Shown: piece by piece, positions 22,217 to 61,797 of the stretch
How the letters are laid out: every line of letters begins with the position of its first letter
How positions within the stretch are numbered: position 1 is the first letter of the stretch
DNA from: Sipunculus nudus
Taxonomy: Eukaryota > Annelida > Sipuncula > Golfingiida > Sipunculidae
DNA: 64,000 bases
Assembly: GCA_026874595.1 (NCBI GenBank)
Contig: CM049306.1
Coordinates: 45,012,019 to 45,076,018 of the forward strand
Direction of reading: 5' to 3'
The notes under the pieces: model-generated
The model's database searches: none
The model's input: the letters and a program-made list of their open reading frames with translations, nothing else
What the model was told of the DNA's origin: nothing
Made by a program: the position numbers and the translations under genes

Positions 22217-22554
22217 CCATTACCATGGGGACCTAATATACGTTCAATTATATTCTTCTTTTTCTTAAAATTCAAAATATGGAGTTTTATTCTAATAGAC
22301 GGTTTTCTATTCTCCATGACAGGAGTACATGGCCTTCACATGGCGTTTTTTCCCGTATGTCTGTCTGTTTGTCTGTCTACTCATCTGCGACTTTTGAAAA
22401 TCAGCATAACCACACAAAATTGTGCTTCTGTTTCCGCCATAATTGGGGTAATTCATTTTGCCAGTTCCAAACGTAAACTGACTGTCTGCTGTATGTTGTA
22501 TCCTAGTTTGACTTTCTTATTTCCGCTTCCGGCAAGCGTTCGACCTCTGGTCGT

Positions 22555-25500
22555 CTAGTCTGTTTGTCTGTCATCTCTCTACAGGTCTCAATTTTGCACC
22601 AATCACTTTCAAACTTACACACTTTATAGATAATCAAAAATGCAAGAAGCCTATTGTTTTTGGTCAATATAGGTCAAAGGTCAAACGGTGTTTTCTTCAT
22701 ATCTTTGTCACTATTAGTCGTATCTACTTCAAACATAGCTCATTTTAAACGTCATTCCAAGGCCAGTCATCTGGTGTGTAGCTGACTCAAATTTGCCGTA
22801 ACCATGGTTACGAATTTTTGGGAAAAAGTCATGATATTCGAAAATAAGGGGCCTTATTTTTCCAACTATGGCAGTTTTACAGCTAGAGAGGTCTAGTTTT
22901 TTTAATCAGGTAGCATTTAACAAGTACTGCAAGATTTTATTACAGGTCTCGCGATATCTCGTATAATGTCTCGTCAAACGAGATGTTTCGAGATTTCAGT
23001 AATCTTGCCCTGGAGGTCACAGTTTTGCAGGAATCTTTTTGAAACTGACACATCGTAAGTCCTACATTATTATCTCGAAATTGTTTTTCCATTTTTTTGG
23101 ATGCAGGCGCTAGGTGGCGCTGTATGCAAACCTCCACAACATATCATGTTTTGGCCATATCTCCAAATCTGTGAGCCCCAATTACATAAACTATAGCTTA
23201 TTTTCTTCCTCTGAGTCTTTTCTAAATCCTGGTGTAGTCATTTCGACTCAATCTTGAGTCACTTTGTCAGTGTTTCCGTCTGTTTCTCAGTTGTCCTCAA
23301 ATTTGCCTGCTTACCGGTTCTGGCGTCTCACATATAGCATTCTACAGGCGACAGTTTTGAAAGAATCCTTTTAAAACTATTACATCTTATGTCTTACACT
23401 AATATCTCGAAACCCATTTTTCATTTTCCAGAATTGGCCACTAGGGGGCGGTGCACTCAAATTTGCACAACATATCATTTTTTGGCCATATCTCCAAAAT
23501 TATAAACCCCATTTACATAAAACTGTAGCTTATTTTTTTCCTGTGGGTCTTTCCAAAAACCTGGTGTATTCATTTGGTCTCAATCTTGAGTCACTTTGTC
23601 TGTGTGTCAGTCTGTTTCTCAGTTGTCCTCAAATTCGCTTGCTCAGCGGTTTTTGCGTCTCACATATAGCATTCTACAGGCCACAGTTTTGAAAGAATCC
23701 TTTCCAAACTATTACATCTTATGTCTTACACTAATATCTTGAAATCAATTTTTCATTTTCCATAATTGGCCACTAGGGGGCGGTGCACTCAAACTTGCAC
23801 ACATATCATTTTTTGGCTATATCTCCAAAACTATAAACCTCATTTACATAAACTATAGCTTATTTTCTTCCTTTGGGTCTTTCCTAAAGCCTGGTGTATT
23901 CATTTGGTCTCAATCTTGAGTCACTTTGTCTGTGTGTCCGTCTGTCTCTTAGTTGTTCTCAAATTCGCTTGCTTGCCGGTTCTTGCGTCTCACATATACC
24001 GTTCTACTGGCCACAATTTTGCAGGAGTCGCTTTGTAACTTACACTTGTCGTAACGATATCTGGAAGCCCTATGTTTATTATTCAAATAAGTCAAAGGTC
24101 AAGGTCAAGGTGATCAAAACATATCAACATTTTTTTTCTTCAGAACTTTGTTAATATTGATCCTATCTTTACAAACTAGGGATTATTTTCTTTCACTTTG
24201 ACATTGATCGTTTATCTGACTAACTTTACTTCATTTCCGGCAAGCGCGTGACCTCTGGTCATCTAGTCTGTTTGTCTGTCATCTCTCTACAGGTCTCAAT
24301 TTTGCACCAATCACTTTCAAACTTACACACTTTATAGATAATCAAAAATGCAAGAAGCCTATTGTTTTTGGTCAATATAGGTCAAAGGTCAAAGTCAAGG
24401 TCATCAAAACTTCTCAAAACGGTGTTTTCTTCATATCTTTGTCACTATTAGTCGTATCTTCTTCAAACATAGCTCATTTTAAACGTCATTCCAAGGCCAG
24501 TCATCTGGTGTGTAGCTGACTCAAATTTGCCGTAACCATGGTTACGAATTTTTGGGAAAAAGTCATGATATTCGAAAATAAGGGGCCTTATTTTTCTAAC
24601 TTTGGCAGTTTTACAGCTAGAGAGGTCTAGTTTTTTTAATCAGGTAGCATTTAACAAGTACTGCAAGATTTTATTACAGGTCTCGCGATATCTCGTATAA
24701 TGTCTCGTCAAACGAGATGTTTCGAGATTTCAGTAATCTTGCCCTGGAGGTCACAGTTTTGCAGGAATCTTTTTGAAACTGACATAGCGTAAGTCCTACA
24801 TTATTATCTCGAAATTGTTTTTCCATTTTTTGAATGCAGCCGCTAGGTGGCGCTGTATGCAAACCTCCCCAACATATCATGTTTTGGCCATATCTCCAAA
24901 ACTGTGAGCCTCAATTACATAAACTATAGCTCATTTTCTTCCTCTGAGTCTTTTCTAAATCCTGGTGGAGTCATTTTGACTCAATCTTGAGTCACTTTGT
25001 CAGTGTGTCCGTCTGTTTCTCAGTTTTCATCAAACTCGCCTGCTTACCTGTTATGGCGTCTCACATATAGCATTCTACAGCTCACAGTTTTGAAAGAATC
25101 CTTTTAAAACTATTACATCTTATGTCTTACACTAATATCTCGAAACGGATTTTTCCTTTTCCAGAATTGGCCGCTAGGGGGCGGTGCACTCAAACTTGCA
25201 CAACATATCATTTTTTGGCCATATCTCCAAAACTATAAACCTCATTTACATAAAATATAGCTTATTTTCTTCCTCTGGGTCTTTCCAAAAACCTGGTGTA
25301 TTCATTTGGTCTCAATCTTGAGTCACTTTGTCTGTGTGTCCGTCTGTTTCTCAGTTGTCCTCAAATTCGCCTGCTTGCCGGTTCTTGCGTCTCACATATA
25401 GCATTCTACAGGCCACAGTTTTGAAAGAATCCTTTTAAAACTATTACATCTTATGTCTTACACTAATATCTCGAAACGGATTTTTCATTTTCCAGATAAG

Positions 25501-25990
25501 GCCGCTAGGGGGCGGTGCACTCAAACGTCCACAACATATCATTTTTTGGCCATATCTCCAAAAGTATAAACCTCATTTACATAAACTATAGCTTATTATC
25601 TTCCTCTGAGGTTTCTCCATCACATGATTAAGTCAACTGGTCTCAATCTTGGGTCAGTTTGTCAGTATGTTTGTCTGTTTGTCAGTTGTCCTCAATTTCG
25701 CCTGCTTCCAGGTGCTAGCTTCTCACATGTAGCATTCTACTGGACAGTTTTGAAGGAATCGTTTTGTAAATTACACTTGTCATATATCATGATGATATCT
25801 GGAAGTCCTATGTTTATTATTCAAATAAGTCAAAGGTCAAGGACAAGGTGATCAAAATATATCAAAATCTTATTTTCTTTAGAACTTTGTTAATATTGGT
25901 TCTTTCTTCACAAACTATGGATTATTTTCTTTCACTTTTATACTGCTCGTTCATCTGACTAACTTTACATCATTTCCAGCAAGCGCGTGA
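22555..25990 (+). repeat. 1.7-kb higher-order direct duplication
   Basis: CTAGTCTGTTTGTCTGTC starts a unit at 22,555 and again at 24,263, an offset of 1,708 bases, and a diverged third start lies at 26,002. The first ~650 bases of the two full units are nearly identical, including a 16-bp perfect palindrome CGTAACCATGGTTACG at 22,797 and 24,531 and the stem TCTCGT-CAA-ACGAGA at 22,968 and 24,703. The first unit lacks about 30 bases after its AGGTCA pair, a deletion between short direct repeats. Each unit contains several of the ~330-bp modules. Confidence 0.85.
24233..24262 (-). repeat. Inverted boundary motif ATTTCCGGCAAGC
   Basis: ATTTCCGGCAAGCGCGTGACC closes a unit here, and close relatives close units at about 22,526, 25,972 and 27,116. 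It is the inverse of the GCTTGCCGGAAAT hairpin arm that opens the block at 17,791, so units are bounded by an inverted pair of about 13 bases. Confidence 0.7.
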
Positions 25991-27169
25991 CCTCAGGTCA
26001 TCTAGTTTGTTTGTCCCAATGTTTGTTTGTTTGTTTGCTTCTGTCTTACATATAGCATTCTACAGGCCACAGTTTTGCAAGAATCCTTTTGAAATTGGTG
26101 AATCTTATGTCTAACACTCATATCTCAAAATTGATGTTTCATTTTCGGGATATGGCCGCTAGGGGGCGGTGCAATTAAACTTCATCAACGTATAATTTTT
26201 TGACAATATCTCCAAAACTATACACCTGAATTACATAAACTATAGCTTAATTTCTTCCCCTGAGTCTTCTCCATAACTTAGTTAAGTCATCTGGCCTTAG
26301 CTTTGTGTCGCTTTGACAGTATGTCTATCTGTCAGTTGTCATCAATTTCGCCTTCTTGCTTGTTCCTTTGTCTAACATATAGCATTCTACAGGCAGGAAT
26401 CCTTTTGAAACTGATACATCTTATGTCCTACACTAATATCTCGAAAGTGATTTTTCAGTTTCCGAAAATAGCTGCTAGGGGGCGCTGCACTTGAAAGCCT
26501 ACAACATATCATTTTTTGCCCATATCTCCAAGACTTTAAACCTAAATTTTATAAACTGTAGCTTGTTTTCTTCCTCTGTCTTCTTCACAACATAGTTTAG
26601 TCTTTTTGTCTATACTTTGTGCCGCTTTGTGAGTATGTCGGTCACTTCAAAACACTTCGAAATGTTATTTTCCTCATAAATTCGTCCATTCTGGTCCTAT
26701 CTTCACAAACTTTTGCTCATTTTTTTCACCTTCGTCTTCTACATAGCTTAGTCTAGTCAACTGGTCTCAATTTGTGTCACTTTGTCAATATGTCTGTCTG
26801 TTTGCAAGTTGTCCCAAATGTTGCCTTCTTGCTGGTTCTTGCCTCTGTTATAATAGCATTCTATAGGCCACAGTTTACAAGGAATCACTTTGCAACTTTC
26901 ACCTATCGTATATTGAAACGATTTCTTGAAGCTGTATATGTATTTTTAAATAGGTCAAAGTTCAAGGTCAAAGTCATGAAAACATGTCAGATTATTATTA
27001 TCATTGTAACTTTGTCAATATTGGTCCAGCCTTTACAAACAATGGCTCATTTTCTTCCTCTTTGTCTTCTTTATGACATGTTCAGGTTATCTGTCTTCCA
27101 ATCTGGGTCAGAGTGTTTCCGGCAAGCGCGTGACCTCTGGTCGTCTTGTTTTGATTATTTAGGCGAACT

Positions 27170-29102: not shown

Positions 29103-29819
29103 TTGTCCTGTAATAACGTAATTGGTTTGGTAACAAGCCGGGTTAACAGCACGTGGAAAGTCTCTATTCACAGGTGCCTATCTGCTACAGCGAAACATGC
29201 AAAGCGCTCATGAGAAGGGTAATTGATTTCTCCAGAATCTGCCCTGAATTATTTACAAAAATATTGGGAACCCAACTCAGGCCTTGTCAAAATACCACGC
29301 AAACAGAGAGAGTTATGTCGCTTCACGTCTCTGCATTAATCAGATATCATGCATTATCCTGTGACCAAAGCACTTTTTCCGTCTAACGTTCAATTCATGC
29401 ATTATCTAGATCCTTACAATTTCATTCGCTAAAACAATATATTCAATATATAGATCTTGGTCACACCCGTTCCATTTCAAACAATTTTAGTGAAGGTTTT
29501 AGAAGTATTGAAAATAAGTTCACCGGTACCTTTCGGCAAAATTAACCTCATGATTAACCTGAATGTTATCTCTGCCTTGTTAATTTAAATTAATTCTGCA
29601 TTTACGTACTCTGCAATATCAGATACTGTTTGTTGGAACCCCGAATTTATTAATGGTAAAATATGCGTTGTATAGTAACATTAAAGGCCGACGTACATAA
29701 ATACAATAAAGACAAACATAGATAAAGCCAAATATAGATTTACAGAATGACCGGAATTAAGACAGTTATAAACAAAGACAGTAATATACAGGGATAAAGA
29801 CTAACATAAACAAGGGTAT

Positions 29820-30735
29820 ATTTACAGACAGGGATAAAGACTAACATAGACAGTGGTATACTTACAGACAGCAATAAAGAATAACATAGACAATGGTATA
29901 CTTACAGACAGGGATAAAGACTGACATAGACAATGGTATACTAACAGACAGGGATAAAGACTGACATAGACAATGGTAAACTTACAGACAGGGATAAAGA
30001 CTAACATAGACAATGATGTGCTTACAGACAGAGATAAAAACTAACATATACAATGGTGTACTTACAGACAAGGATAAAGACTAACATAGACAATGGTATA
30101 CTTACAGACAGAGATAAAGACTAACATAGACAATGGTGTACTTACAGACAGGGATAAAGACTAACATAGACAATGGTGCACTTATAGGACAGGGATTAAG
30201 ACTAACATAGACAATGGTGTACTTACAGACAGGGATTAAGACTAACATAGACAATGGTGTACTTACAGACAAGGATAAAGATTTACATAGACAATGGTGT
30301 ACTTGCAGACAGGGATAAAGACTAACATAGGCAATGGTATACTTACAGACAGAGATAAAGACTAACATAGACAATGGTGTACTTACAGACAGGGATTAAG
30401 ACTAACATACACAATGGTGTACTTACAGACAGGGATTAAGACTAACATAGACAATGGTGTACTTACAGACAGGGATTAAGACTAACATAGAAAAGGGTAT
30501 ACTTACAGACAAGGGATAAAGACTAACATAGCCGAAGGAATACCTACAGACAGGGATAAAGACTTACATAGACAATGGTGTACTTACAGACAGGAATTAA
30601 GACCAACATCGACAATGGTATACTTACAGACAAGGATAAAGATTTACATAGACAATGGTGTACTTACAGACAGGGATTAAGACTAACATAGAAAATGGTG
30701 TACTGACAGACAGGAATAAAGACTAACATATAGAA
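29820..30735. repeat. 40-bp minisatellite, about 23 copies
   Basis: The unit has cores CTTACAGACAGGGATAAAGA and CTAACATAGACAATGG and a period of 40 bases, with diverged edges reaching to about 29,700 and 30,960. Because no phase of the minus strand contains a stop within the unit, long minus-strand frames run through it (29,822-30,013; 30,102-30,374; 30,683-30,928). These are not genes. Confidence 0.95.
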
Positions 30736-32144: not shown

Positions 32145-32172
32145 GTGCATAAAGCTCCAAACCTTGAACATG
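32145..32172 (+). repeat. Left inverted arm bounding the 32-bp minisatellite
   Basis: GTGCATAAAGCTC, nine bases, then AACATG. The right arm at 35,760-35,787 is CATGTT, nine bases, GAGCTTTATGCAC: the exact reverse complement with the same nine-base gap. Inside the arm one array unit lies in the opposite orientation (CTCTCGATGGTCTGAT). Confidence 0.85.
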
Positions 32173-32224
32173 CTCTCGATGGTCTGATAAAACCGATTCT
32201 AGCACAGGGCAAAGAATCAGACAA

Positions 32225-35200
32225 GCGAGAGCTGGTGTCCCGGTGTAATCAGACCAACGAGAGCTGGTGTGCCGGTGTAATCGGACCAACGAGAGCTGGT
32301 GTGCCGGTGTAATCAGACCAACGAGAGCTGGTGTGCCGGTGTAATCAGACCAACGAGAGCTGGTGTGCCGGTGTAATCAGACCAACGAGAGCTGGTGTGC
32401 CGGTGTAATCAGACCAACGAGAGCTGTTGTCCTAGTGTTATCAGACCAACGAGAGCTTGTGTCCTGATGTAATCAGACCAACGAGAGCTGGTGTCCCGGT
32501 GTAATCAGACCAACGAGAGCAGTTGTCCTAGTGTAATCAGACCAACGAGAACTGGTGTGCCGGTGTAATCAGACCAACGAGAGCTGTTATCCTAGTGTTA
32601 TCAGATCAACGACAGCTTGTGTCCTGGTGTAATCAGACCAACGAGAGCTGTTGTCCCGGTGTAATCAGACCAACAAGAGCAGTTGTCCTAGTGTAATCAG
32701 ACCAACGAGAGCTGTTGTCCTAGTGTTATCAGACCAACGACAGCTTGTGTCCTGGTGTAATCAGACCAACGAGAGCTGTTGTCCCGGTGTAATCAGACCA
32801 ACAAGAGCAGTTGTCCTAGTGTAATCAGACCAACGAGAGCTGTTATCCTAGTGTTATCAGACCAACGACAGCTTGTGTCCTGGTGTAATCAGACCAACGA
32901 GAGCTGTTGTCCCGGTGTAATCAGACCAACAAGAGCAGTTGTCCTAGTGTAATCAGACCAACGAGAGCTGTTGTCCTAGTGTAATCAAACCAAAGAGAGC
33001 TGTTGTCCCAGTGTAATCAGACCAACGAGAGCTGTTGTCCTAGTGTAATCAGACCAACGAGAGCTGTTGTCCTAGTGTAATCAGACCAGCGAGAGCTGGT
33101 GTCCCAGTGTAATCAGACCAACGAGAACTGTGGTCCTAGTGTAATCACACCAACGAGAGCTGTTGTCCTGGTGTAATCAGACCAATGAGAGCTGGTGTCC
33201 CGGTGTAATCAGACCAACGAGAGCTGGTGTGCCGGTGTAATCAGACCAACGAGAGCTGTTGTCCTAGTGTTATCAGACCAACGACAGCTTGTGTCCTGGT
33301 GTAATCAGACCAACGAGAGCTGGTGTCCCGGTGTAATCAGACCAACGAGAGCAGTTGTCCTAGTGTAATCAGACCAACGAGAGCTGTTGTCCTAGTGTAA
33401 TCAGACCAACGAGAGCTGTTGTCCAAGTGTAATCAGACCAACGAGAGCTGTTGTCCTAGTGTATTCAGACCAACGAGAGCTGTTGTCCTAGTGTAATCAG
33501 ACCAGCGAGAGCTGGTGTCCCGGTGTAATCAGACCAACGAGAACTGTGGTCCTGGTGTAATCACACCAACGAGAGCTGTTGTCCTGGTGTAATCAGACCA
33601 ATGAGAGCTGGTGTCCTGGTGTCATCAGACCAATGATAGCTGGTGTCCTAGTGTAATCAGACCAATGAGAGCTGTTGTCCTAGTGTAATCAGACCAGCGA
33701 GAGCTGGTGTCCCCGTGTAATCAGACCAACGAGAGCTGGTGTGCCGGTGTAATCGGACCAACGAGAGCTGGTGTGCCGGTGTAATCAGACCAACGAGAGC
33801 TGGTGTGCCGGTGTAATCAGACCAACGAGAGCTGTTGTCCAAGTGTAATCAGACCAACGAGAGCTGGTGTGCCGGTGTATTCAGACCAACGAGAGCTGTT
33901 GTCCTAGTGTAATCAGACCAGCGAGAGCTGGTGTCCCGGTGTAATCAGACCAACGAGAACTGTGGTCCTGGTGTAATAATACCAACGAGAGCAGTTGTCC
34001 TAGTGTAATCAGACCAACGAGAGCTGTTGTCCTAGTGTAATCAGACCAACGAGAGCTGTTGTCCCAGTGTAATCAGACCAACGAGAGCTGTTGTCCTAGT
34101 GTAATCAGACCAACGAGAGCTGTTGTCCTAGTGTAATCAGACCAGCGAGAGCTGGTGTCCCGGTGTGATCAGACCAACGAGAACTGTGGTCCTAGTGTAA
34201 TCATACCAACGAGAGCTGTTGTCCTGGTGTAATCAGACCAATGAGAGCTGGTGTCCTGGTGTAATCAGACCAACAAGAGCTGGTGTCCCGGTGTAATAAT
34301 ACCAACGAGAGCAGTTGTCCTAGTGTAATCAGACCAACGAGAGCTGTTGTCCTAGTGTAATCAGACCAACGAGAGCTGTTGTCCCAGTGTAATCAGACCA
34401 ACGAGAGCTGTTGTCCTAGTGTAATCAGACCAACGAGAGCTGTTGTCCTAGTGTAATCAGACCAGCGAGAGCTGGTGTCCCGATGTAATCAGACCAACGA
34501 GAACTGTGGTCCTAGTGTAATCATACCAACGAGAGCTGTTGTCCTAGTGTAATCAGACCAACGAGAGCTGGTGTCCCGATGTAATCAGACCAACGAGAAC
34601 TGTGGTCCTAGTGTAATCATACCAACGAGAGCTGTTGTCCTAGTGTAATCAGACCAACGAGAGCTGGTGTCCCGGTGTAATCAGACCAACGAGAGCAGTT
34701 GTCCTAGTGTAATCAGACCAACGAGAGCTGTTGTCCTAGTGTAATCAGACCAACGAGAGCTGTTGTCCCAGTGTAATCAGACCAACGAGAGCTGTTGTCC
34801 TAGTGTCATCAGACCAATGAGAGCTGTTGTCCTAGTGTAATCAGACCAGCGAGAGCTGGTGTCCCGGTGTAATCAGACCAACGAGAACTGTGGTCCTAGT
34901 GTAATCACACCAACGAGAGCTGTTGTCTTTGTGTAATCAGACCAATAAGTGCTGGTGTCCCGGTGTAATCAGACCAACGAGAGCTGTTGTCCTAGTGTAA
35001 TCAGACCAACGAGAGCTGTTGTCCCAGTGTAATCAGACCAACAAGAGCTGTTGTCCTAGTGTAATCAGACCATCGAGAGCTGGTGTCCCGGTGTAATCTG
35101 ACCAACGAGAACTGTGGTCCTAGTGTAATCACACCAACGAGAGCTGTTGTCCTGGTGTAATCAGACCAATGAGAGCTGTTGTCCTAGTGTAATCAGACCA

Positions 35201-35757
35201 GCGAGAGCTGGTGTCCCGGTGTAATCTGACCAACGAGAGCTGTTGTCCTAATGTAATCAGACCAACGAGAGCTGTTTACTGGTGTAATCAGACCAATGAG
35301 CGCTGTTGTCCTAGTGTAATCAGACCAGCGAGAGCTGGTGTCCCGGTGTAATCAGACCAACGAGAACTGTGGTCCTAGTGTAATCACACCAACGGGAGCT
35401 GGTGTCCTTGTGTAATCAGACCAATGAGAGCTGTTGTCCTAGTGTAATCAGACCAGCGAGAGCTGGTGTCCCGGTGTAATCTGACCAACGAGAACTGTGG
35501 TCCTAGTGTAATCACACCAACGAGAGCTGTTGTCCTGGTGTAATCAGACCAATGAGAGCTGTTGTCCTAGTGTAATCAGACCAGCGAGAGCTGGTGTCCC
35601 GGTGTAATCAGACCAAAGAGAACTGTGGTCCTAGTGTAATCACACCAACAAGAGCTGTTGTCCTGGTGTAATCAGACCAATGAGAGCTGTTGTCCTAGTG
35701 TAATCAGACCAGCGAGAGCTGGTGTCCTGGTGTAATCTGACCAACGAGTGCTGGTGT
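32225..35757. repeat. 32-bp minisatellite, about 110 copies, with higher-order structure
   Basis: The unit is about 32 bases with cores ATCAGACCAACGAGAGCTGG and TGTCCCGGTGTA. Variants differ at GAGAGC/GAGAAC, CCAACG/CCAGCG/CCAATG and GGTGTCCCGG/GTTGTCCTAG. In the distal part four variants form a 128-bp higher-order repeat: the CCAGCGAGAG variant starts at 35,195, 35,322, 35,450, 35,578 and 35,706. The period is not a multiple of three. There are no unique spacers between units, so it is not a CRISPR array. The reverse of the unit aligns with the SINE body at 35,788-35,845. Confidence 0.95.
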
Positions 35758-35774
35758 TGCATGTTTAGAATTAT

Positions 35775-35845
35775 GAGCTTTATGCACAAAGCGATACCAC
35801 GCTCGCATTGGTCGTATTACACTTCTTTGCTCTTTGCTCACCTTG
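35775..35845 (-). mobile_element. SINE body fragment at the minisatellite edge
   Basis: GAGCTTTATGCACAAAGC, ACCACGCTCGCATTGGTCG and TTTGCTCTTTGCTCACC match in order the SINE at 54,709-54,780 (GAGCTGGATGCACAATGC, ACCACGCCCTCATTGGTA, TTTGCTCTGTGCTCACC). This identifies the right flank of the array as part of the same SINE family. Confidence 0.7.
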
Positions 35846-35849
35846 CGTG

Positions 35850-38800
35850 TCATATAACATTCCTATAAAAATATTAATATAGATTTACATAAACCTGACC
35901 CAATTCCTCTAAGAAAAAGTTTTTCTATTTATTTTTCCACAAAACACATTAAGTCGTTGATCGGTTTAAAGCTATCAGCACAGCTAAGAGCACTCTCAAC
36001 TTTTCAGTGACGTCAGCAACAGGGAAACCTTTCGTGACTAAAAATTCTAGATCTCAACAAAAGCCTAGCATTTCTGACACATGTAACCCGAAATTTCAGG
36101 GAAGAATAGAAACAAAATGTATTGCTAGAAATAAGTCAGTAATAATTTTGTCCGTGACGTCAGACTTTGCAACGGTCAATCACATCAGGGCCAAGTCTCT
36201 GATCTGCATGCAACATTAACACGTTAACGTAACCTATATCCTGATCAGATCTTGGTACCGTAAATACTCTATAAACCCGTCACTTAGCGCCGTCATTTCA
36301 CACAGAGGCCTAAAAAAAGACTAAGGTTAAAATATTAAAGTAACAGATTGGTTCTTTATCATCCGAGTAATAAGATTGAACAGAAACATAAATTTTCTTC
36401 TTTCATGCTACTTCTTCCTGTTTGCACATGTGCAAGATTGGGCACTGGTCATGTTATCTTGTTATGATACACATGCACTCGTGGACTGCGTTTACTCAAA
36501 CACAGAAACATAAAAACGTATAAAACGGATGAATTGAGATAGTAAGTACGTATAATGGGACTGTTTTGTTAGTAAGCTTAGCTTTCAGCCAAAATGAATT
36601 AATGGCGTGAGATACTGTATAAATTATTGCAAATGTTAATGTACCTTTAAGGAAAAGGGTGCGATCTTTCTTTGTCGATATAACGACCCCGAAAACTTAG
36701 AGTCAGTTGTCGCCAACAGAAGCTGGTGGTGTGCTGAAAAAAAGGTCTGTGATACCGGAACACATGCGCACCCTATATATATAACAGTTAATACCTATAT
36801 ACATGTGTGCGTTTTAAGCGTAGTCAGGTTTGGGGCAAAACCTGTTAAGGGCAAGGAGTTCGCAAAGAGGGGTCATGGAGCATCATCGGGTCTAAAAAAT
36901 ACAATAACACATACAGGTAGACGGACTGGGCCACCGGGAGGCCGATACGAAAAAAAAATATCTTAATGCCTGTTGACCGATGGTATGAACTAAATGTTGA
37001 TGCCGGTTGGCTGATTGTATTAAATTTGAGGCGCTTTCACTTACATTTCCGGGGTTTATTTCCCCACCCCAGTCCGCCCCTGAACACAGACGCATACAAA
37101 GCTGCACTTTAATTCATACCAACTTCGTGGTTTTAACAGCATTTTTTTAAAGGCAAAAGGCTCGGTGCAGTAAGTTTAAATCTACTTTTGAGATACTCTC
37201 TGCATATTAACAACATCTAACATTTTAAACCAGTAATTAATAAAAATTTCATTAAAATAAAAAAAACCTAGAATAGTAAAAAAAGTTAATGAAATAATGT
37301 CACAAAGTTTCCTATTTAATTAGCCCATTAAGCATCTTCCTCTTGTTGATGGGTTAATAAAACAGCACACTTGTGAAAAAATATTAATAACATTAAAATA
37401 TCCTATGAAAATGAAAATTGGTTATTGCCAGGGATGGTGCCTTAAAGGGGCCTAATCACCTATAAAGCATGTTGAATTAAAACGAATAACATCGTCTTCT
37501 CTTTGAAATAAATTTGTGCCTGCCAAAATATTGCCCTTAAACCGTTGGCTTAATCTTGTACACGAGTGTTAAATACAGAGGAAGGGCACGATCACAGGCG
37601 TCAGCATAAAGTACATCAGCCAGAGGGTTCATCGGTACCAAACAGGTGACAATTGCTATCAATGGTTTTTTTTAAGATGTATGTTTGTAGATAATAAAAA
37701 TGCCTGAAAACAGTATGAAAGTGGTAGCTTTCTGTAAAATATCAGCCTGTTTTGAAATGTACTAGCAACGAAATGGCAATTTTGCGGTACATTCTGTTAT
37801 ATATATATATTATTTAGGTATAACATTTTATATAATGCTTATTTAAAAACAAATTTGATGTCAGTTGATAGTAGACATTTATGGCTTTCATCTGGTGTGT
37901 TATTCATGTATATAGCTTTCCAAATTCCACAGATATGAATACTTTTCCTCACCCTGTATCATAGCAATTAGTGTAATTAAAGCTCATTTATTAAAAAGAC
38001 GAGGTGCATTTCTAATTAGACCTACAGTGACCAGTTTGGTTTAAATGAAATGATTAATGAAGTCTGAAGTCTTTTAGCTGAAAAAAAAACATGTCTGGCA
38101 CCCAACTACAGTTTGAGGTTTTGGGCGTGGTCATAGAATGATGTTATTCCGTTCTTCAGTTAGCCGATACATGTCCCATTGCCACCAAATGTCCGCAGAA
38201 ACAATTAATGCCTGGTTGATGTTTTTGAGTACTTTTATACCCACGCACTAAGTGAACCATGATTGGTTAATCTTCCAAATTATTCCACTCGGCTGCTATC
38301 GTTGGCCGATATATAGACTAAAACTCGGATGTCGCAAGCCGAATGTCACACATGACAGGTATGCAGGCCGGGTACTCGGCTAGTTGTTTAAATATATGTT
38401 TTTGCATGTCTCCGCTTAAAAAAAGGGCGACAAGTCATTTTGACTTGTATATTTATATATTTATAAGTATATTTTTATTTGTAAGTTTTTATTATATATT
38501 TATGCCTAAATCACTTGTGATATCGTTCAAACTTTGCCGCCGTATCTGCACTTCTGGCCAAATTCGCTTTCTTACACGAAATATAAAAGAGCCTTCGGCT
38601 GAGAGAGGGCTTTGTTGTCTGCTGAAATATTTCCATGCAAATATTTCCTACAAACTTAACATAAACAATCAAGGCAAGAGCAGTTAATGTACCTACAACA
38701 TTTTGCTTAGGTTGCACCATAAGTAAATGATAGATATTGCAGTTTGCCTTTGTGTCAGGACTTACTGTGAATGTGAAGCAGAGCTGTAAGTTATTCATTC

Positions 38801-43028: not shown

Positions 43029-43075
43029 TATCAAAGATGTATAAAACAGACACATTGTTTACTGATAAGAATTTT
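43029..43075. repeat. Single ancestral unit of the 33-bp repeat seen at 55.1 kb
   Basis: ATGTATAAAACAGACACATTG and TTTACTGATAAG followed by TTTATTTGGGTAA aligns with one unit plus the right flank of the tandem repeat at 55,090-55,290. The position relative to gene A matches that of the array relative to gene B. Confidence 0.65.
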
Positions 43076-43998
43076 ATTTGGGTAAAGATGCGTTTCCATT
43101 TTCCATGGATACGTTTAGTGTGTTTCTACTTATAAGTTCGTCGTACGTACGGCTAAAGATATAGTCTCATAAGGTTTATTATGTTTATTTGTTTATTTGT
43201 ATATATGGTCATATAGTAAAGGAGTACTGATATACATTTGAGAGCACGTGTCTGTGGGCTTTTTCCGAAATATTACGTCATTGCGGCAGTGCCCGAACAG
43301 GAAGAGTTCTGAAAACGCCGTATGGCGCCGCATACGGCAAGTAGACACACTCCTTTTATTTTATCATATTATAGTGCCAACCGTACCCGTATCCGTGTCC
43401 GGACAAGCTGAACACAGCTTACTGCTACTCTGCAATCACAGATGACGATAACATAAAATCCTTCTTGCTTCCTGTCGCAGCGATCATTTACAGAATTATT
43501 GTGTGTTTCATCAGTCTGTATCTATGTTTTGAGAACATATTGTTTATTTCATCTGGAAAGCTTCTTTAAAAAATAAAGGTTGAAAAACAATCAGGGGAAA
43601 TTACCCTTATTTTGCCACGGAAATACATTCCCTAACTTCCACGATATTTAAGGACTCATATAAATAAAAGCCGGAGAAAATAAGCAGGACAAAATCACAA
43701 GCACACTTCAGTGTTAATGTCATTGACCAATGTTTTGCCGCAGACCCAATGATACCTTTCCCTTTTACATGTAGCGACATTTGATCTATCAGATGATGTG
43801 ATAGAGTCCAAACTATAGTAAAACGTAAATTCTTGAATATTAGATAGTCACCTCCATCTGTTGTTTTTAATAAAATTAAACAAACATATAAGCTTTAAGA
43901 AAGGTAACGTAAAAATTACATGAGTAACTGGAAAAAGAGTACATTAGTTTGATAATAAGTGTGTTAGTTTTATAACATGCAGTGTATATCATCGCAGG

Positions 43999-44141
43999 TT
44001 AATCCACGTTGAGTTTCCTGAACGAGGCCTCCATACCAGTGTCTGCGGGACGAAGTTTATCATTGACTCCATAACGTCCATCTGTCCAACGCAGCAAGCG
44101 GTTACGGAACTCAGACTCCGTCACATGGTCACGAAACTTCG
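43999..44141 (-). CDS. Gene A exon 7 (C-terminus and stop)
   Basis: 143 bp, beginning with two bases that complete the split codon after the previous exon's final G (phase 1), preceded by an AG acceptor. It encodes KFRDHVTESEFRNRLLRW through YGVNDKLRP to SFRKLNVD and stops with TAA. The ending is typical of invertebrate members of the family. 37 of 47 residues match copy B. Confidence 0.9.
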
Positions 44142-44341
44142 CTATGAACGGAAATTCAGTACAATGAAAGTTACGATTTCTAATGAAAATTTGAAAAAAA
44201 ATGTAAATATTCGTTTAGCGCAGTAACAACACAATCCCTCTCGGAGTAAATTAAAAGATCTCTTACGATCATTATTTTGACTGAACATGTTTTATTTTGT
44301 TAAAATCATGTGTAATGATGTAAAGGCAAAATAAATTACAT

Positions 44342-44389
<48 letters not shown>

Positions 44390-44671
44390 GTTTTACCTGT
44401 AATTTCTTTGATGTTGCCCGCGTGTGGTCCCGTGTATTCATCTGGAAGATATTCCTCTGGCAATAGGTCCATTGGTACGTGTTTATACAGGCCATCAAGC
44501 GAATGTCCATGCAGAAAGATCTTGGAAATCATAATTATAATAATATATCATAATATTAATGATAATAAAAGTGTTAATTTTTGTAAATAACAAAAGTTAT
44601 TTTGAAAACAAAAATAAAACAAGATAAATGAAAAAGAAAAGGGAAGAAGGAGTAATATATGTAATATTAAT

Positions 44672-44726
<55 letters not shown>

Positions 44727-44742
44727 TATAATAATTATACAT

Positions 44743-44796
<54 letters not shown>

Positions 44797-47700
44797 TCTT
44801 ATATGAAAATTTCATCTACCTTATCAATCATTTGCATAATCATTACTATACCATTAACCTTCTGGCTGGCGCAGGGCTGACCATAACAATATTCACTAGA
44901 CTGGTATCTAACGTATTTACAAAGGTCTCCAAATTTCTGACACTCTAGCTTCGACACTTACCCGGCTCTTCAGTTTACCGGTCATCAAGCTCAGCATGAA
45001 GCTGAAAATAGCTTCCATGCCAGCTCCCATATTGTAGAAATGAAATGCTTTGTATCGGCCAGGAAAGTTACCCTACAACGTTTGATAATATTGATATAAT
45101 TTCATTAATTTAAACAAACTGTTGGTAAACTTTTACCTCTTTAAAGCAAGACACTCAACTGGTTGTTTGGATGCCAGAGTAGATTGCGCAAGAAAATATT
45201 TAAAGCAAGGGCACCTAAAGTGTTCTTGCTACTGGAAAAAAATAATTGCAGGCATGCCAAATCATTTTTTTTTAAAGAGTGAATGTTTTTGTTTAAGATT
45301 TACTAAAAAGACGCTAATAACTATTTTTCATCCCTTTCTTCAGCAGCTCTCTTTTTCTCTTCTTTTTTCAGTAAAGGGTCCCGACATCGATAATTTCCCT
45401 TTTACTATGACTGTCCATTGAGTAGAAAGTTTGTGTAAGCATTTGTCTGGCGTGTGCCACCACATTTGGAAAAATGTCCTAATCTTCAGACTAGAGCATG
45501 AACAGCATGCATGCTTCTGACTTTAAGAGTTATATATATACGTATATATATATTCGTACTATGTGAAGCAGATCTATCTTCAGATTATTATGAAAATGGG
45601 GAATTATCGCTGATTTTACTTCCTTTTGGCCCTTTTTCCCAGAGCACCTATTATTTCTGTCATTTACCTTTGGCAGGCGTGAATTGATTAGTGTAAATTT
45701 TGTAATATTTAATATAAAACATACAAAATAATGCTCTTAATGAGGGGCCGCTATTGTTATATTTAACATGATTAACAAAGTAGCCGAGAACCAATAATTT
45801 TTATTAAGTTCTCCTACAACCATTTAAAACAAAGCACGTTCAATGACAATGACAATATACATAGTGAAATATGTAGACGGATGTCAGCACAATATATTAA
45901 TATGTTTATGCATATAAATTATGCATGAGTTTAACATAATGGTTATTCATAAGCTGCTTCTGTGCAACGTGAAGGTAAGCACCAGTGTTTTAAGTCCAGC
46001 CTATCTGAGTCTGCGTGCAAGTACGATTCAAAGTCTAAGGTCCTTAAGCTTATAGTCAAAGTACGATTCCAAGTATTTTGAATGCGATTCCAGGTCCGAG
46101 TCCATTTTTTTATTAAAACAATCAGGTTACAAGTTAAGCTAAAAGAGTCAGAATTTAATCACCATATTTTTATTTTTATTTATTTGAAATTCACATGCAG
46201 GATTAGAAATCTTTATCCCCGTCTGGAAATGTTTAAAAAAGGCACGTGCCTTATGAAAATGTGATGGGGGCGTTTTCATTTAGGTGATCATATGTACCTA
46301 TCTCATTTACTTTGACGGGCTTCATCTTAATAACACCTATAAATATCAACAGAAGTGGGTTTACTGTTGTGTAGGTTGCAGGTCGTCGTGAAATGTGAAT
46401 TCTGAAATACATCTGACAAAGTAAGTGCAAGGTACCAGGCTACACACCTGCCAGCAGTTGACCCACTTCCGGATGTTTTCAAGGCTCCACCTGGTGTTAT
46501 GTTTCAGCGTTGTTCCCGTCATATCAAAAATAAACACAAGTCCGTTAACCTGGATGGCCTCGTCCCATCCGTTCTCGGCTGTGACTATGGTGTTAAGTCT
46601 GACTTCGATATCCACTGATAGATCAGGCTTGATAGCTCCTGAAAGCGACCAAAAGTAACGTCCAGAGGTTATATTTAAATGTAATTGAACGTTTTTATTG
46701 GCATTATCTTCATAAAAGTCACAAGCATATTGATTCATAAAAACTAATTTATTAAACGACGACACATTATATCAACCACCGTGAAACCGGAAACATTTGC
46801 GGGCATGTAATTTTCACGATTTTTTTGCAAAGAAATCTAGAAAATCGCACCATGGGATTGGGAGGCCTGCATGCAGCCGGGTATGTATATATATAACGCT
46901 TCGCCTGCGATATGTCAATGGGGCGTGTACCGAAAAACTATAGATCGGCATAACGCATTTCTGCGACCACGCCCAAACCAACTGACTATAGTAGGATGTA
47001 GACCTAGCTTTATGACAACACCCAGTCAAAGGATTGCCTGTTATTGTGACTTACCATAGCGGAAGAGAAGGATTCTGCAGCCGTCCTTCGTCCTCTTTGG
47101 TAGAGGCAGTATAAACCTAAAATAACGCAAAAAAAGAAGGCTTTAAAGCCACAGCCAGCAACGCCACACAGGCTTAATATAACCTATATGTAAATGTACG
47201 CTGTGGGCGTCCAAAAGGACATAAGAATATTTTCTATTTCGTCCATAATAGTAATTAAATGTTACATGTCATATACTATTTATATACCGTAGTTCATGTT
47301 TGCTTATTTCAAGGGTAATTAAATTTATATAAACTAAGTTGTGCGTTATGCACACTGTATTTCAAATTATTGTAAGATTATAGTAGTTGATGTTTAATAT
47401 GAATATATGCTAACAAGTGAGGAAAGCCTAGAAATATCGACACCAAATGCGCCAGGTATATTGATGGTAAAATTGGCAGTCAGATATATTCTGTATGTTT
47501 CACCACATATATCTAATTGCTTCCAGTTAACAAAATATGTAATTATAACCAGCTATCTTAGTAAATGCCTGAGTCACTGGGTCTCTTTTTTTCTATAATA
47601 GCCTTTAACTTTTTTACACATGTAGGAATTTATATAAACTGCTTCATATCAACCAAACGAAGTAATCTTGTAATGGCTAAACGTATGCAATTACAGGCCA

Positions 47701-48568
47701 AACATTTACTTGACAGGAAACATCAGGAACTCTTCTTTCTAAGAGGAACCGCTGTATTAATACTGGACTTCATTAATGGCATGTTTGAGAGAACACATCC
47801 TTACTATTTTGACAATTGAAATGAAATACGTACTAGACTGGCGTAGTCGATGCAATGATTAACATTTAATTCCTCCCACAAACACAGCCATCACACTTAC
47901 TCTTGCTGTGTCGCGGTGCTGCCACCTCGCGGCAGTTTATACGACGAAATTACGGCTCTCTATTTACGACTACCGGTTTATGGAATTCATGGAATTACGT
48001 TTTATTTTACGTATTTTTTGTAGCAATACTATATACGCACCCGCTATCTAGAACTTTGAGAAGTTTTGGTTCTTTCGTGTCCACATGTGGGTTATTTGTG
48101 TATACCCTGTACATTTTTCTTGCTTTCAGTTGACTGAACTTGGCTGCTCTCAGGAACAGCAATAGATGAAGCGTATCTAGGTGAATATAATAATAATAAT
48201 AATAATAATATAATAATAATAATATATAATCATAAATAACAAAAATTATGATAACAAAATGGCAAAATTGAATATGACAATAAGAAGGAGAAAAATGTAA
48301 GAAGTTGAAAGAAGAAGAAGAAAAAAGGAGAAGAAAAGGGGGAAGGAAAGCAAATAGTAAGAAGATCAATTTAAGATGAAGAAAATTCTCGTGCAGAAAG
48401 AATATGAGACCCACGTGACTATCACCTGTTCTGCATTTGATATGAGGCTGCTGTTGAACCCATTCTCTGAGGGTCCTCGTTCAGTTCTTTCTTCGCCTTG
48501 TCCAGGGAGGCCTTGTCCAGTTTACACTTGTACTCACTGTCCTGGATCTCCACTTTGGAATGACTCAT
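43999..48568 (-). CDS. CRAL-TRIO domain lipid-transfer protein, copy A (alpha-tocopherol-transfer-protein-like), seven exons
   Basis: Proteins of this family bind a small lipophilic ligand (tocopherol or retinoid in known members) in a closed pocket and move it between membranes in the cytosol. Seven exons with GT-AG borders and matching phases give 291 residues, close to the ~280 of the vertebrate tocopherol carrier. Visible in order: an N-terminal helix with KASLDKAKKELNEDP; the CRAL-TRIO-N end with FLRAAKFSQLKARKM; the lipid-binding lobe with DEAIQVNGLVFIFDMTG, KWVNCWQ and GNFPGRYKAFHFYNM; a basic KLKSR before FLHGHSLDGLYKHVP, the place of the phosphoinositide-contacting KIKER in the vertebrate tocopherol carrier; LLPEEY; and the C-terminus ASFRKLNVD. 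The ATG has A at -3. Compared with copy B it lacks LEGT and WFRY-like residues in exon 2, and the link between exons 1 and 2 is about 20 residues shorter than usual. The ligand is not deducible. Confidence 0.88.
44350..44386. repeat. (AT)n microsatellite in gene A intron 6
   Basis: TA run that ends about 10 bases past the donor of exon 6. The equivalent intron of gene B has no such run. Confidence 0.85.
44397..44520 (-). CDS. Gene A exon 6
   Basis: 124 bp, in phase 0 and out phase 1, donor ACAG/GTAAAA, acceptor CCAAG. It encodes IFLHGHSLDGLYKHVP, LLPEEYLPDEYTGP and NIKEIT. HGHSLDGLYKHVP..LLP is the strand and loop closing the CRAL-TRIO pocket. Confidence 0.92.
44668..44793. repeat. (TAA)n and (AT)n compound microsatellite in gene A intron 5
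   Basis: About 18 TAA-type units followed by a TA run. The equivalent intron of gene B (56,690-56,870) has a diverged ATAATG/AAT-rich tract at the same place. Confidence 0.9.
44962..45072 (-). CDS. Gene A exon 5
   Basis: 111 bp, phase 0 at both ends, acceptor TTGTAG, donor CCGG/GTAAGT. It encodes GNFPGRYKAFHFYNM through the amphipathic segment MEAIFSFMLSLMTGKLKSR. FPGRYKAFHFYNM is the hallmark strand of CRAL-TRIO domains. Confidence 0.93.
46448..46638 (-). CDS. Gene A exon 4
   Basis: 191 bp, acceptor TTTCAG, donor CAG/GTGTGT, in phase 1 and out phase 0. It encodes AIKPDLSVDIEVRLNTI, WDEAIQVNGLVFIFDMTG and NIRKWVNCWQ. NGLVFIFDMTG is the central strand of the lipid-binding fold. The open frame continues past both splice sites for a short way, which is chance. 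Confidence 0.93.
47055..47116 (-). CDS. Gene A exon 3
   Basis: 62 bp small exon, acceptor TTTTAG, donor TATG/GTAAGT, in phase 2 and out phase 1. It encodes FILPLPKRTKDGCRILLFRY, the first strand of the CRAL-TRIO lobe with the usual R at its end. Confidence 0.9.
48041..48176 (-). CDS. Gene A exon 2 (CRAL-TRIO-N)
   Basis: 136 bp, acceptor ACCTAG, donor AGCGG/GTGCGT, in phase 1 and out phase 2. It encodes TLHLLLFLRAAKFSQLKARK, then MYRVYTNNPHVDTKEPKLL and KVLDS. It is 24 bp shorter than the copy B exon because two blocks of four residues are missing, one of them covering the family's conserved P-x-W-F. Confidence 0.88.
48186..48224. repeat. (ATA)n microsatellite in gene A intron 1
   Basis: AAT-type repeat ten bases upstream (minus-strand sense) of exon 2. 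Gene B has an (ATA)n run at 61,764-61,794 in the same intron position. Confidence 0.85.
48460..48568 (-). CDS. Gene A exon 1 (start of protein)
   Basis: ATG at 48,568 opens MSHSKVEIQDSEYKCKLDK and KASLDKAKKELNEDPQRM. LDKAKKELNEDP is the recognised N-terminal helix of CRAL-TRIO-N proteins. The 3' border is uncertain. The donor ATGG/GTTCAA gives the phase needed for exon 2 but is a weak site. A stronger-looking AACAG/GTGATA at 48,426 gives the wrong phase unless an unseen small exon follows. Confidence 0.72.
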
Positions 48569-51714: not shown

Positions 51715-52345
51715 CTGGTCTCGGGATGACGTCCCTCTGATATCTCGAGTCCTTTCCTCCGAGTCAGAGTCCTCGGAATGGACTCCGTCTGATATCACAG
51801 TCCTTTCCTCCGAGTCAGAGTCCTCGGGATGGACTCCGTCTGGTTTCTCGAGTCCTTTCCTCCGAGTCAGAGTCCTCGGGATGGACTACGTCTGATATCT
51901 CGAGTCCTTTCCTCCGAGTCAGAGTTTTGGGGATGGACTCCGTCTGGTTTCTCGAGTCCTTTCCTCCGAGTCAGAGTCCTCGGGATGAAATCCGTCTGAT
52001 ATCTCGAGTCCTTTCCTCCTAGTCAGAGTCCTCAGGTTGGACTACGTCTGATATCTCGAGTCCTTTCCTCCGAGTCAGAGTCCTCGGGATGGACTCCGTC
52101 TGGTTTCTCGAGTCCTGTCCCCCGAGTCAGAGTCCTCGGGATGGACTCCGTCTGGTTTCTCGAGTCCTTTCCTTCGAGTCAGAGTCCTCGGGATGGACTC
52201 CGTATGATTTCTTGAGTCCTTTCCTTCGAGTCAGAGTCCTCGGGATGGACTCCGTATGATTTCTTGAGTCCTTTCCTTCGAGTCAATAACCTCGGGATGG
52301 ACTCGGTCTGGTTTCTCGAGTCCTTTCCTTCGAGTCAGAGTCCGT
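51715..52345. repeat. 52-bp minisatellite, about 12 copies
   Basis: The unit contains TCTCGAGTCCTTTCCTCCGA, GTCAGAGTCCTCGGGATGG and ACTCCGTCTG, with period 52. Most units carry a CTCGAG palindrome. Copies differ by a few substitutions (GGTTTC/GATATC; CCTCCG/CCTTCG). Confidence 0.95.
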
Positions 52346-52544: not shown

Positions 52545-52845
52545 AGTATCACACGCTTCCTCTCATTATATATCCTGTTAACCAGGCCCGATGAGTACTG
52601 CACCTGCGGGTCCTGGGTGTAAAATCCTTCCCACTACTGGGTTATACCACAGAGGAATCCCCTAAAGGCGCACTCGTTTTGTGAATGATGCACGGCCGTT
52701 GGGTATGGCCTTCCCATTAAGCATGCAAAGCGCCCACCCTGGACGGGACCCTGAAAATCTCACCGTCCTGGATGAGATTCGAACTCATGATCTCCCGGCT
52801 TTGGGTCCAGAGCTCTACCTCTGAGCCTCAGAAGCCGGTACTAAC
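52545..52845 (-). mobile_element. tRNA-derived SINE, copy a (uninterrupted)
   Basis: On the minus strand the head reads GCTCAGAGGTAGAGCTCTGG (A-box region) and GAGTTCGAATCTC (B-box) about 40 bases on, a clear tRNA-like promoter. The body includes CCAGGACCCGCAGGTGCAG and ends near GTGATACTGCCCTGTC. Copy b just downstream shares the body words CTGCGGGTCCTGG, GGGC.GTAT and GATGCAC. An anticodon-bearing intact cloverleaf is not present. Confidence 0.75.
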
Positions 52846-52914: not shown

Positions 52915-52996
52915 AAGGGCGGTATAGCACACAATTCCACTTTCTTATATCCCAGTGGCACCCGGGCCGGGTAACCAACGCAACTGCGGGTCCTGG
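52915..52996 (-). mobile_element. tRNA-derived SINE, copy b, distal part (split by insertion)
   Basis: GAAAGGGCGGTATAGCACAC to AACTGCGGGTCCTGG matches the equivalent end of copy a. The SINE stops at CTGG (52,993-52,996), where a TIR element begins, and resumes at 54,595. Confidence 0.7.
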
Positions 52997-54594: not shown

Positions 54595-55050
54595 CTGGTG
54601 TGGTAACCTCCCCCAATGCTGGGAATTAATAACTAGGAACCCCCTGTTCTCCTCAGGCAGCAGTAACACACTGCAATTGTCCCAGGGCGTCCGCAGGGTA
54701 AACACTTTGAGCTGGATGCACAATGCAGAAACCACGCCCTCATTGGTATGATCACACTTATTTGCTCTGTGCTCACCCTGGTGGTCAAACCCAGAGAATG
54801 TTACCATACAAAGCAGAAGTTGCATGAAAAGAGATCTGGGACGACTGCACAGTATAACCGCTGCGTGATTAGCGTGGGGTGGTTCTTGGCAGTGGGGCAC
54901 AGCGTTGTCATTACGTCTACAGATCGCTGACTCTTGGTAGTAAAAGACGGTGAAATATCACATCGCATCTCGGTACAGATTCGAACTGTTGATCTTCCGG
55001 TTCTAAGTCCTATACTCCACCCCTTGACCACCGAAGCCGGTGTTAATTCA
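54595..55050 (-). mobile_element. tRNA-derived SINE, copy b, proximal part with tRNA-like head
   Basis: After the CTGG duplication the SINE resumes. The minus-strand head has TGGTCAAGGGGTGGAGTATAG (A-box region) and CAGTTCGAATCTGT (B-box). The body words at 54,709-54,780 match the fragment beside the 32-bp minisatellite. Open frames across it (54,580-54,900; 54,801-55,184) are not conserved in copy a. Confidence 0.7.
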
Positions 55051-55089
55051 TGTTTGAATGTAAAATTATACGTTAAAGCTCTACTATCA

Positions 55090-55290
55090 AAGACATACGA
55101 AAAAGACACATCATTCACTGAAGAGACATACGAAAAAGACACATCATTCAGTGAAGAGACATACGAAAAAGACACATCATTCAATGAAGAGACATACGAA
55201 AAGACACATCATTCACTGAAGAGACATACGAAAAAGACACATCATTCACTGAAGAGACATACGAAAAAGACACATCATTCACTGAAGAGA
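55090..55290. repeat. 33-bp tandem repeat, about six copies
   Basis: Unit cores GAGACATACGAAAAAGACAC and ATCATTCACTGAA. The period of 33 keeps a frame open on the plus strand (repeating TYEKDTSF), but one unit has lost an A (near 55,200) and shifts it. The homologous flank of gene A has a single unit, so the array grew after duplication. Confidence 0.95.
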
Positions 55291-61711: not shown

Positions 61712-61763
61712 CTAGTTCAAGAATAAGAAGATGATGGTAAAGATAAAATTGATGATGATGGTG

Positions 61764-61794
<31 letters not shown>
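61764..61794. repeat. (ATA)n microsatellite upstream of gene B exon 2
   Basis: About ten ATA units in the same intron position as the run at 48,186 in gene A. Confidence 0.9.

Positions 61795-61797
<3 letters not shown>

What the first reader, a model, noticed from the sequence alone, without database searches (positions are those of the whole stretch)
32145..35845. A ~110-copy minisatellite that seems to be made from a SINE body
The reverse of the 32-bp unit (GACACCAGCTCTCGTTGGTC, TGATTACAC) aligns with the SINE body directly beyond the array (GATACCACGCTCGCATTGGT, CGTATTACAC) and with the SINE at 54.7 kb (GAAACCACGCCCTCATTGGT, ATGATCACAC). The array's right edge is itself SINE sequence. This suggests a transposon fragment turned into a satellite in place.
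Basis: partly seen in the sequence, partly recalled or inferred. Interest (0 to 1): 0.72.

Follow-up and report, generated by a model that had tools for sequence, protein, structure and literature searches.

The report
Minisatellite grown inside hairpin DNA transposon
A block of about 111 copies of a 32-letter repeat sits in the middle of a degraded hairpin-shaped jumping element; sister copies elsewhere in the same genome carry one, two, three, about eight or more than a hundred units, so early stages of minisatellite growth can be compared side by side.

Summary
The array is real: 32215-35757, 111 units of 32 bp. The element is not a SINE. Copies from the host genome (1.43 Gb) show a long-inverted-repeat ("foldback") DNA transposon: inverted arms of about 190-210 bp, termini TACGCTCCTC..GAGGAGCGTA, and 9-bp target duplications; the complete copy that I folded forms one long hairpin. 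Its centre reads: one antisense unit, a loop, then sense units. Of 42 short copies fetched, 24 could be counted: 4 have about one sense unit, 18 about two, two have 2.4 and 2.9. At 23 other places, and in this window, the sense units form arrays of about 10 to 148. The window locus is a truncated copy; the "SINE" at 54.7 kb is another copy with its centre deleted. Two copies of one insertion, about 70 kb apart, carry about 8 and 111 units, so array length changes in place. Whether the arrays arose several times or spread from one master is not settled. Related systems are known (Tetris, Tm1, Galileo). Partner transposase and species were not identified.

The parts
32145..32173 (+). inner end of the truncated left arm (model positions 181-209)
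   Evidence: Arm-profile hit, E 0.0016 in a short search; inverted repeat of 35759-35787, 79% over 29 bp. The outer part of this arm and its terminus were not found.
32171..32195 (-). single antisense (inner left) unit
   Evidence: Unit-profile hit E=0.0012 at 32189-32171; inverted repeat 88% over 24 bp with the first array units.
32197..32220 (+). central loop of the element, TTCTAGCACAGGGCAAAGAATCAG (in other copies typically TTCTGGCACAGGGCCAAGAATCAG); its last 6 bases are the start of array unit 1
   Evidence: Located; loop at the left array edge in 11 of 24 array loci in this orientation and in 1 inverted.
32215..35757 (+). array of 111 sense units, 110 of 32 bp and one of 31 bp
   Evidence: 93 of 112 hits of the two-repeat profile lie here, all on this strand.
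35756..35870 (-). inner part of the right arm (model positions 92-210), truncated; outer terminus not found
   Evidence: Arm profile, built without this copy, E=1.3e-18; alignment.
   Evidence: This copy was one of the 10 arms used to build the profile, so its profile hit is by construction; as a BLAST query the region finds other genomic copies, the best at E 1.2e-41.
54649..54688 (+). outer part (model 31-70) of the opposite arm of the same second copy
   Evidence: Arm-profile hit in inverted orientation, E=0.002, 6.6e-6 in the short search.

Best explanation
The array is the expanded centre of a truncated copy of a hairpin-shaped (foldback, long-TIR) cut-and-paste DNA transposon that is abundant in this genome and too short to be autonomous. 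The full element is about 450-520 bp: a left arm of about 190-210 bp, one antisense unit, a loop, one to three sense units, and a right arm that is the reverse complement of the left. Each arm carries a further, outer copy of the unit motif, which is why the unit resembles the '54.7 kb SINE'. SHOWN: arms, hairpin in one folded copy, termini, 9-bp target duplications, the unit-number ladder, local similarity of units, and one insertion present in two paralogous copies with about 8 and about 111 units. INFERRED: the usual two-unit tandem on one side of the loop is the seed from which replication slippage or unequal exchange at individual insertions grew the long arrays, probably more than once; a Mutator-like transposase in trans moved the element, from the target-duplication length; the array has no selected function.
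For: Arrays at 23 further places, on 12 contigs counting the window's (clusters read from the rows listed; fetched; measured). An arm adjoins the array in 19 of 24 array loci; 9 of these 19 gave an arm to the profile, 10 did not. Complete short copies with 1, 2 and 3 units; of 42 short loci 24 could be counted: 4 near 1 unit, 18 with 1.5-2.1, one 2.4, one 2.9. Arm pairs 74-86% identical over 178-217 bp in the 9 elements measured. L065 folds as one hairpin, z -15.7, 0 of 100 shuffles as good. Target duplications: with 15 automatically placed elements and no offset, 9-bp flanks match 4.87/9 for own ends against 2.51/9 for ends of other elements, 0 of 5000 permutations, while 8, 10 and 11 bp give no signal (863, 2281 and 758 of 5000). 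Terminus pattern: 949 places, control 0. Nearest unit lies in the same locus for 1180.6 of 1329 units, 79.6 expected. L026 (111.5 units) and L057 (7.7 units) share flanks on both sides at 72-78%.
Against: In 5 of 24 array loci (L013, L015, L017, L021, L024) no arm was detected, though L015 and L021 keep the loop. The number of independent expansions is open: the arm tree is poorly resolved, array-bearing copies cluster more than chance, and with L057 correctly labelled a single array clade is not rejected (p-AU 0.063; 0.013 with L057 wrongly labelled short). Individual target duplications are often imperfect (with offsets up to 2: L054 3/9; L014, L027, L060, L070 5/9). The 54.7-kb copy itself, its centre missing, folds no better than shuffles (22 of 100 as good). 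No autonomous partner: the one MULE locus read has no similar arm and no inverted repeat. Loci were chosen by similarity to the queries, so frequencies are biased.
Confidence: 0.83

Rival explanations
1. One array-bearing master element transposed and spread the long array to the array loci; later changes only altered lengths.
For: Shared junctions: loop at the left edge in 11 of 24 loci, tail at the right edge in 13 of 24. Array-bearing arms cluster on the tree (10 changes against 15.0 in shuffles, 1 of 500 as low), and with L057 labelled as an array the single clade is not rejected (p-AU 0.063). Three locus consensus units are identical (L021, L022, L027).
Against: Array-bearing arms are the least alike (mean identity 0.69, against 0.735 array-short and 0.787 short-short, L057 counted as short there, and short loci chosen by similarity). 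The loop and tail junctions are already present in 1-3-unit copies, so shared junctions do not require a master. The best tree needs 10 changes, and 0 of 200 bootstrap trees make the array loci one clade. Units group by locus.
Confidence: 0.3
2. One reading: a SINE body fragment was amplified into a satellite in place.
For: Unit, right flank and 54.7-kb repeat are related. A stretch at 54977-55046 is 71% similar to one at 52775-52844, which overlaps an Rfam tRNA match of 23.9 bits, E 0.017, below its gathering score of 29.
Against: Long inverted arms, inverted termini and 9-bp target duplications. The tRNA-like stretch is outside the element, gave no tRNA match itself at E up to 5, and none was found beside the right-flank copy. 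None of the first 10 non-array hits of the two-repeat profile lies at 52.8 or 43.0 kb.
Confidence: 0.03
3. The array is an independent minisatellite into or beside which an element inserted by chance.
For: 5 of 24 array loci show no arm.
Against: The same junctions at many loci, and the unit sequence present in 1-3 copies at the same position inside short elements.
Confidence: 0.02

Closest known systems
Tetris foldback transposon and TIR-220 satellite of Drosophila virilis (PMC4079207; abstract and part 1 of 2 of the Discussion read)
   Same: Foldback element without a gene whose internal tandem repeats seeded kb-size arrays; authors infer Mutator affinity from 8-10 bp target duplications; the repeat shares a 37-bp stretch with the outer domain of the terminal repeat.
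   Different: About 220-bp units inside the terminal repeats; here 32-bp units beside the central loop, mostly on one side.
Tm1 Mutator/foldback elements of root-knot nematodes (PMC3169594; passages, one of them from the abstract)
   Same: Composite inverted repeats with variable numbers of tandem units, mostly 9-bp target duplications, MITE-like forms.
   Different: 13-15 bp motif arrays in the arms; transposase-coding members were found there, none here.
Galileo (PMC3573991; passages, one of them from the abstract)
   Same: Long internally repetitive terminal repeats; copy number of the internal repeat differs between the two arms; such repeats are said to hold secondary transposase-binding sites.
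   Different: P superfamily, about 210-bp repeats, at most three copies in the passages seen.
Tandem-repeat MITEs and Helentrons of bivalves: pearl/DTC84 (passages in PMC5139131), Cg_HINE (abstract of PMC7492417)
   Same: Dispersed elements with central tandem repeats related to satellites.
   Different: Cg_HINE are classed as Helentrons; pearl-family arrays are up to six monomers in the passage seen; what I read does not describe a nested palindrome with a one-sided array.
SINE-derived satellites of squamates (PMC10702118; abstract read)
   Same: Tandem arrays made from parts of dispersed repeats.
   Different: The parent there is a SINE; here it is a terminal-inverted-repeat DNA transposon.

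Membership tests
SINE | tRNA-, 7SL- or 5S-like pol III head at the 5' end of the repeat | tested here: not met
   No such match in 35700-36300 or 54500-55100 at E up to 5; the tRNA-like stretch known by similarity lies outside the 54.7-kb copy.
SINE | Not built of terminal inverted repeats | tested here: not met
   Long inverted arms and inverted termini.
SINE | Retrotransposon-type 3' tail | not tested
   No computation was made; none was noticed by eye in complete copies.
Foldback / long-TIR DNA transposon without a gene (MITE) | Long inverted arms making most of the element | tested here: met
   9 of 9 elements measured: 178-217 bp aligned, 74-86% identity; one copy folded, z -15.7; the centre-deleted 54.7-kb copy does not fold better than shuffles.
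Foldback / long-TIR DNA transposon without a gene (MITE) | Conserved termini with target-site duplication | tested here: met
   949 termini, control 0; exactly 9-bp flanks, 0 of 5000 permutations, 15 automatically placed elements.
Foldback / long-TIR DNA transposon without a gene (MITE) | No coding capacity | not tested
   Complete short copies are about 310-520 bp between placed ends; open frames were not searched in them.
Mutator (MULE) superfamily | 8-11 bp (commonly 9 bp) target duplications (range recalled) | tested here: met
   9 bp; several individual copies are poor.
Mutator (MULE) superfamily | Termini shared with an autonomous element coding a MULE transposase | tested here: inconclusive
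   131 MULE-domain matches at E 0.001 or better, 150 of 252 candidates scored; one locus read, no shared arm.
Minisatellite / satellite-like array | Head-to-tail units, locally homogenised | tested here: met

The most novel reading that the evidence does not exclude
The tip of this nested palindrome is a standing minisatellite nursery: copies usually carry a ready-made one- or two-unit seed beside the hairpin loop, and the same 32-bp seed has expanded repeatedly and independently, in place, at many insertions of one genome, giving arrays of 10 to about 148 units without spread of a master array.
Probability: 0.45. Interest if true: 0.55.

Novelty: new member of a known kind. Interest (0 to 1): 0.42.

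Why it matters
How a tandem array starts is hard to see, because intermediates are rarely preserved. Here one genome holds insertions of one element with about 1, 2, 3, 8, 11, 12, 19, 33, 44, 102 and 111 units at the same position in the element, and a pair of paralogous insertions that differ by about 100 units. That makes onset, rate and homogenisation of array growth measurable, and lets one test whether hairpin tips favour it.

Tried and rejected
Searches of viral contigs with a unit word found nothing; with an arm word they found one contig, L001, whose only shared stretch with the arm is 21 bp and which I judge a chance match in a phage-like contig. Rfam on the whole window: no match at gathering scores. 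Early idea that the 54.7-kb repeat was an 87-95 bp element with its own short ends: folds of it and of the right-flank copy were no better than shuffles; given up once genome copies showed the full arms. Early idea that a 3.6-kb transposon ran from 32145 to 35787: rejected, because its right end lies inside an unbroken arm. Gappy unit matches at 15.7 and 27.9 kb judged chance. Counts of 1- and 2-unit centres by exact pattern did not complete; the 3-unit pattern gave 0 exact places, which says little because the copies are diverged.

Rows dropped: the inverted-loop matches in L047, L063, L064, L069, L070 and L073 (two), L054 (near tail not matched, a farther one taken), and L027 (88 units; its loop lies near another arm); 17 other short loci gave no count (no loop, or no tail; L057 was counted apart). 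From the target-duplication test: five elements with a weak end (L067, L073, L068, L042, L028); and L041 and L047 had been added by hand there after I had seen L041's duplication, so repeats the test without them (and with all 20 automatic elements: own 6.20, other 4.73, 0 of 5000, offsets allowed). From the arm tree: 8 of 24 array loci without a long enough arm; one arm per locus, left or right.

Full report
OBSERVATION. The array runs from 32215 to 35757: TRF reports period 32, 110.8 copies, 88% matches. Cutting it in register gives 111 units, 110 of 32 bp and one of 31 bp, with 47 distinct sequences among the 110 and mean identity 0.92 to the consensus AATCAGACCAACGAGAGCTGTTGTCCTAGTGT. The stretch beyond the right edge (35759-35852) and the stretch at 54693-54787 are related at 75% over 95 bp, E about 1e-13.

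IS THE UNIT RELATED TO THAT REPEAT? Pairwise local scores of the consensus unit beat most shuffles (54.7 kb: 1 and 6 of 2000; right flank: 0 and 1 of 2000), but a scan of the whole window gives an equal or better plain score at 15701, a gappy alignment judged chance. The stronger test is a profile made only from the two repeat stretches. In the window it finds those two, then array units: 93 of 112 hits, every one on the + strand. The best remaining hits are two pieces of the left flank, weak by themselves (E 0.61 and 1.1), followed by a chance-level hit (E 1.5). Of 1000 arrays with permuted unit columns, none reached the true score. So the relation is real.

THE GENOME. After four unanswered tries the host genome could be searched: 1.43 Gb in 153 contigs, window at C1:45012019-45076018. 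The same 32-bp array is dispersed. From the rows listed (the list is cut) I read 23 array clusters besides the window, on 12 contigs counting the window's; all 23 were fetched (20, 3). Main arrays run from about 10 to 148 copies by TRF; L030-L032 have 12, 109 and 32 unit hits, the second reaching the end of the stretch. Only 40 of 247 first-look candidates were scored, so these are lower bounds.

WHAT THE ARRAYS SIT IN. With units on the + strand, the flanks share a plan. A profile of 10 arms finds an arm next to the array in 19 of 24 array loci; 9 of these 19 supplied an arm to the profile and 10, the window among them, did not. The window's right flank matches model positions 92-210 (E 1.3e-18); the left flank keeps the inner end of the other arm, an antisense unit and the loop. 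Neither outer terminus was found, so the window copy is truncated. The 54.7-kb repeat is an arm (54693-54878, -) plus the outer part of the opposite arm (54649-54688, +): a copy with its centre deleted. The tRNA-like stretch at 54977-55046 lies outside it.

THE ELEMENT. The 54.7-kb region as query gave 2017 first-look candidates, and a complete copy (L053) gave 4757; 40 were scored in each case, so these are not counts of copies. Complete copies read TACGCTCCTC - arm - antisense unit - TTCTGGCACAGGGCCAAG - one to three sense units - inverted arm - GAGGAGCGTA, with variation. In the nine elements measured the arms are 74-86% identical over 178-217 bp, and L065 folds as one hairpin with z -15.7 (0 of 100 shuffles as good); the centre-deleted 54.7-kb copy does not stand out. 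The terminus pattern with up to 3 mismatches occurs 949 times, its backward control 0 times. Target duplications: in 17 elements, with offsets up to 2 allowed, 9-bp flanks of the same element match 6.65/9 against 4.75/9 between different elements (0 of 5000 permutations). Two of the 17 had been added by hand; the 15 automatic ones without any offset give 4.87/9 against 2.51/9 (0 of 5000) at exactly 9 bp, and no signal at 8, 10 or 11 bp (863, 2281 and 758 of 5000). This is a cut-and-paste DNA transposon, probably moved by a Mutator-like transposase (inferred from duplication length). The genome holds 131 MULE-domain matches, but the single MULE locus I could read shares no arm.

INTERMEDIATES. 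By loop-to-tail distance, 24 of the 42 short loci could be counted: 4 with about one unit, 18 with 1.5-2.1, one with 2.4 and one with 2.9. Eight of the 24 array loci counted the same way have 11, 12, 19, 33, 44, 102, 111 and 111 or 112 units (L028, L030, L011, L016, L020, L023, window, L026). L057, one of the 42, has 7.7.

IN PLACE OR SPREAD? L026 and L057 lie on the same contig about 70 kb apart. Their flanks align on both sides at 72-78%, so they descend from one insertion, with about 111 and about 8 units: array length changes in place. Across 24 array loci the nearest relative of a unit lies in its own locus for 1180.6 of 1329 units (79.6 expected), with identity 0.869 within loci and 0.779 between. 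Arms of array-bearing copies are the least alike (0.69), with the caution that short loci were picked by similarity. A tree of 58 arms (16 of the 24 array loci, 42 short) needs 10 changes. It is poorly resolved and the array label is clustered. I had labelled L057 as short; with it as an array, a single array clade is no longer rejected (p-AU 0.063 against 0.013 before; 10 changes against 15.0 in shuffles, 1 of 500 as low). Repeated independent expansion is therefore plausible but not shown.

MECHANISM. Most likely the ready-made two-unit tandem beside the loop, inside a sequence that folds on itself, expands by slippage or unequal exchange at single insertions; multi-unit duplications such as the identical five-unit block at 33975 and 34295 fit this. 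The growth mechanism is inferred. A role of the units as transposase-binding sites, as reported for Galileo repeats (passages in PMC3573991), is possible but untested.

KNOWN KINDS. Tetris (PMC4079207, abstract and part 1 of the Discussion read) is a foldback element whose internal repeats seeded satellite arrays. Tm1 (PMC3169594, passages) is a Mutator/foldback family with variable tandem units and mostly 9-bp duplications. Bivalve tandem-repeat MITEs and Helentrons appear in PMC5139131 (passages), PMC7492417 and PMC8268682 (abstracts). SINE-derived satellites exist (PMC10702118, abstract). My paper searches (listings) did not show this family, but they cannot exclude it: most subscription journals are not held and no repeat database was available. 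I file it as a new family of a known kind, unusual for its unit-number ladder.

Noticed in passing
55091-55290 and about 43035-43085: A 33-bp minisatellite of 6 copies has a single-unit counterpart in the paralogous segment near 43.04 kb, with matching flanks: a second, unrelated case of one-to-several expansion.
   Followed up: partly
about 43995-48254 and 56013-61809: Collinear pieces of a tandem duplication that includes a gene with a CRAL_TRIO domain (exon pieces at 46361-46771 and 58651-58959, - strand).
   Followed up: partly
22527-26015: A 1.75-kb tandem duplication at 91% that contains about 331-bp satellite-like units.
   Followed up: no
52771-52829 (-) and about 52920-53000: tRNA-derived SINE-like stretch; tRNA model 23.9 bits, below its gathering score; a second similar stretch lies beside it by eye.
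   Followed up: partly
29788-30730 and 51720-52343: Two further minisatellites, 40-bp x 23.5 and 52-bp x 12.
   Followed up: no
G000, many contigs: Several dozen MULE-domain places with the same score (47.6 bits) and mostly the same open-frame length (607 aa), which looks like a recent burst of one Mutator-like transposon.
   Followed up: no
L018:1617-2063: A second, unrelated 32-bp array (13.9 copies) about 0.7 kb from an array of this family.
   Followed up: no
L021 left array edge: The loop is inverted relative to the array, so here the array seems to have grown on the other side of the loop.
   Followed up: partly
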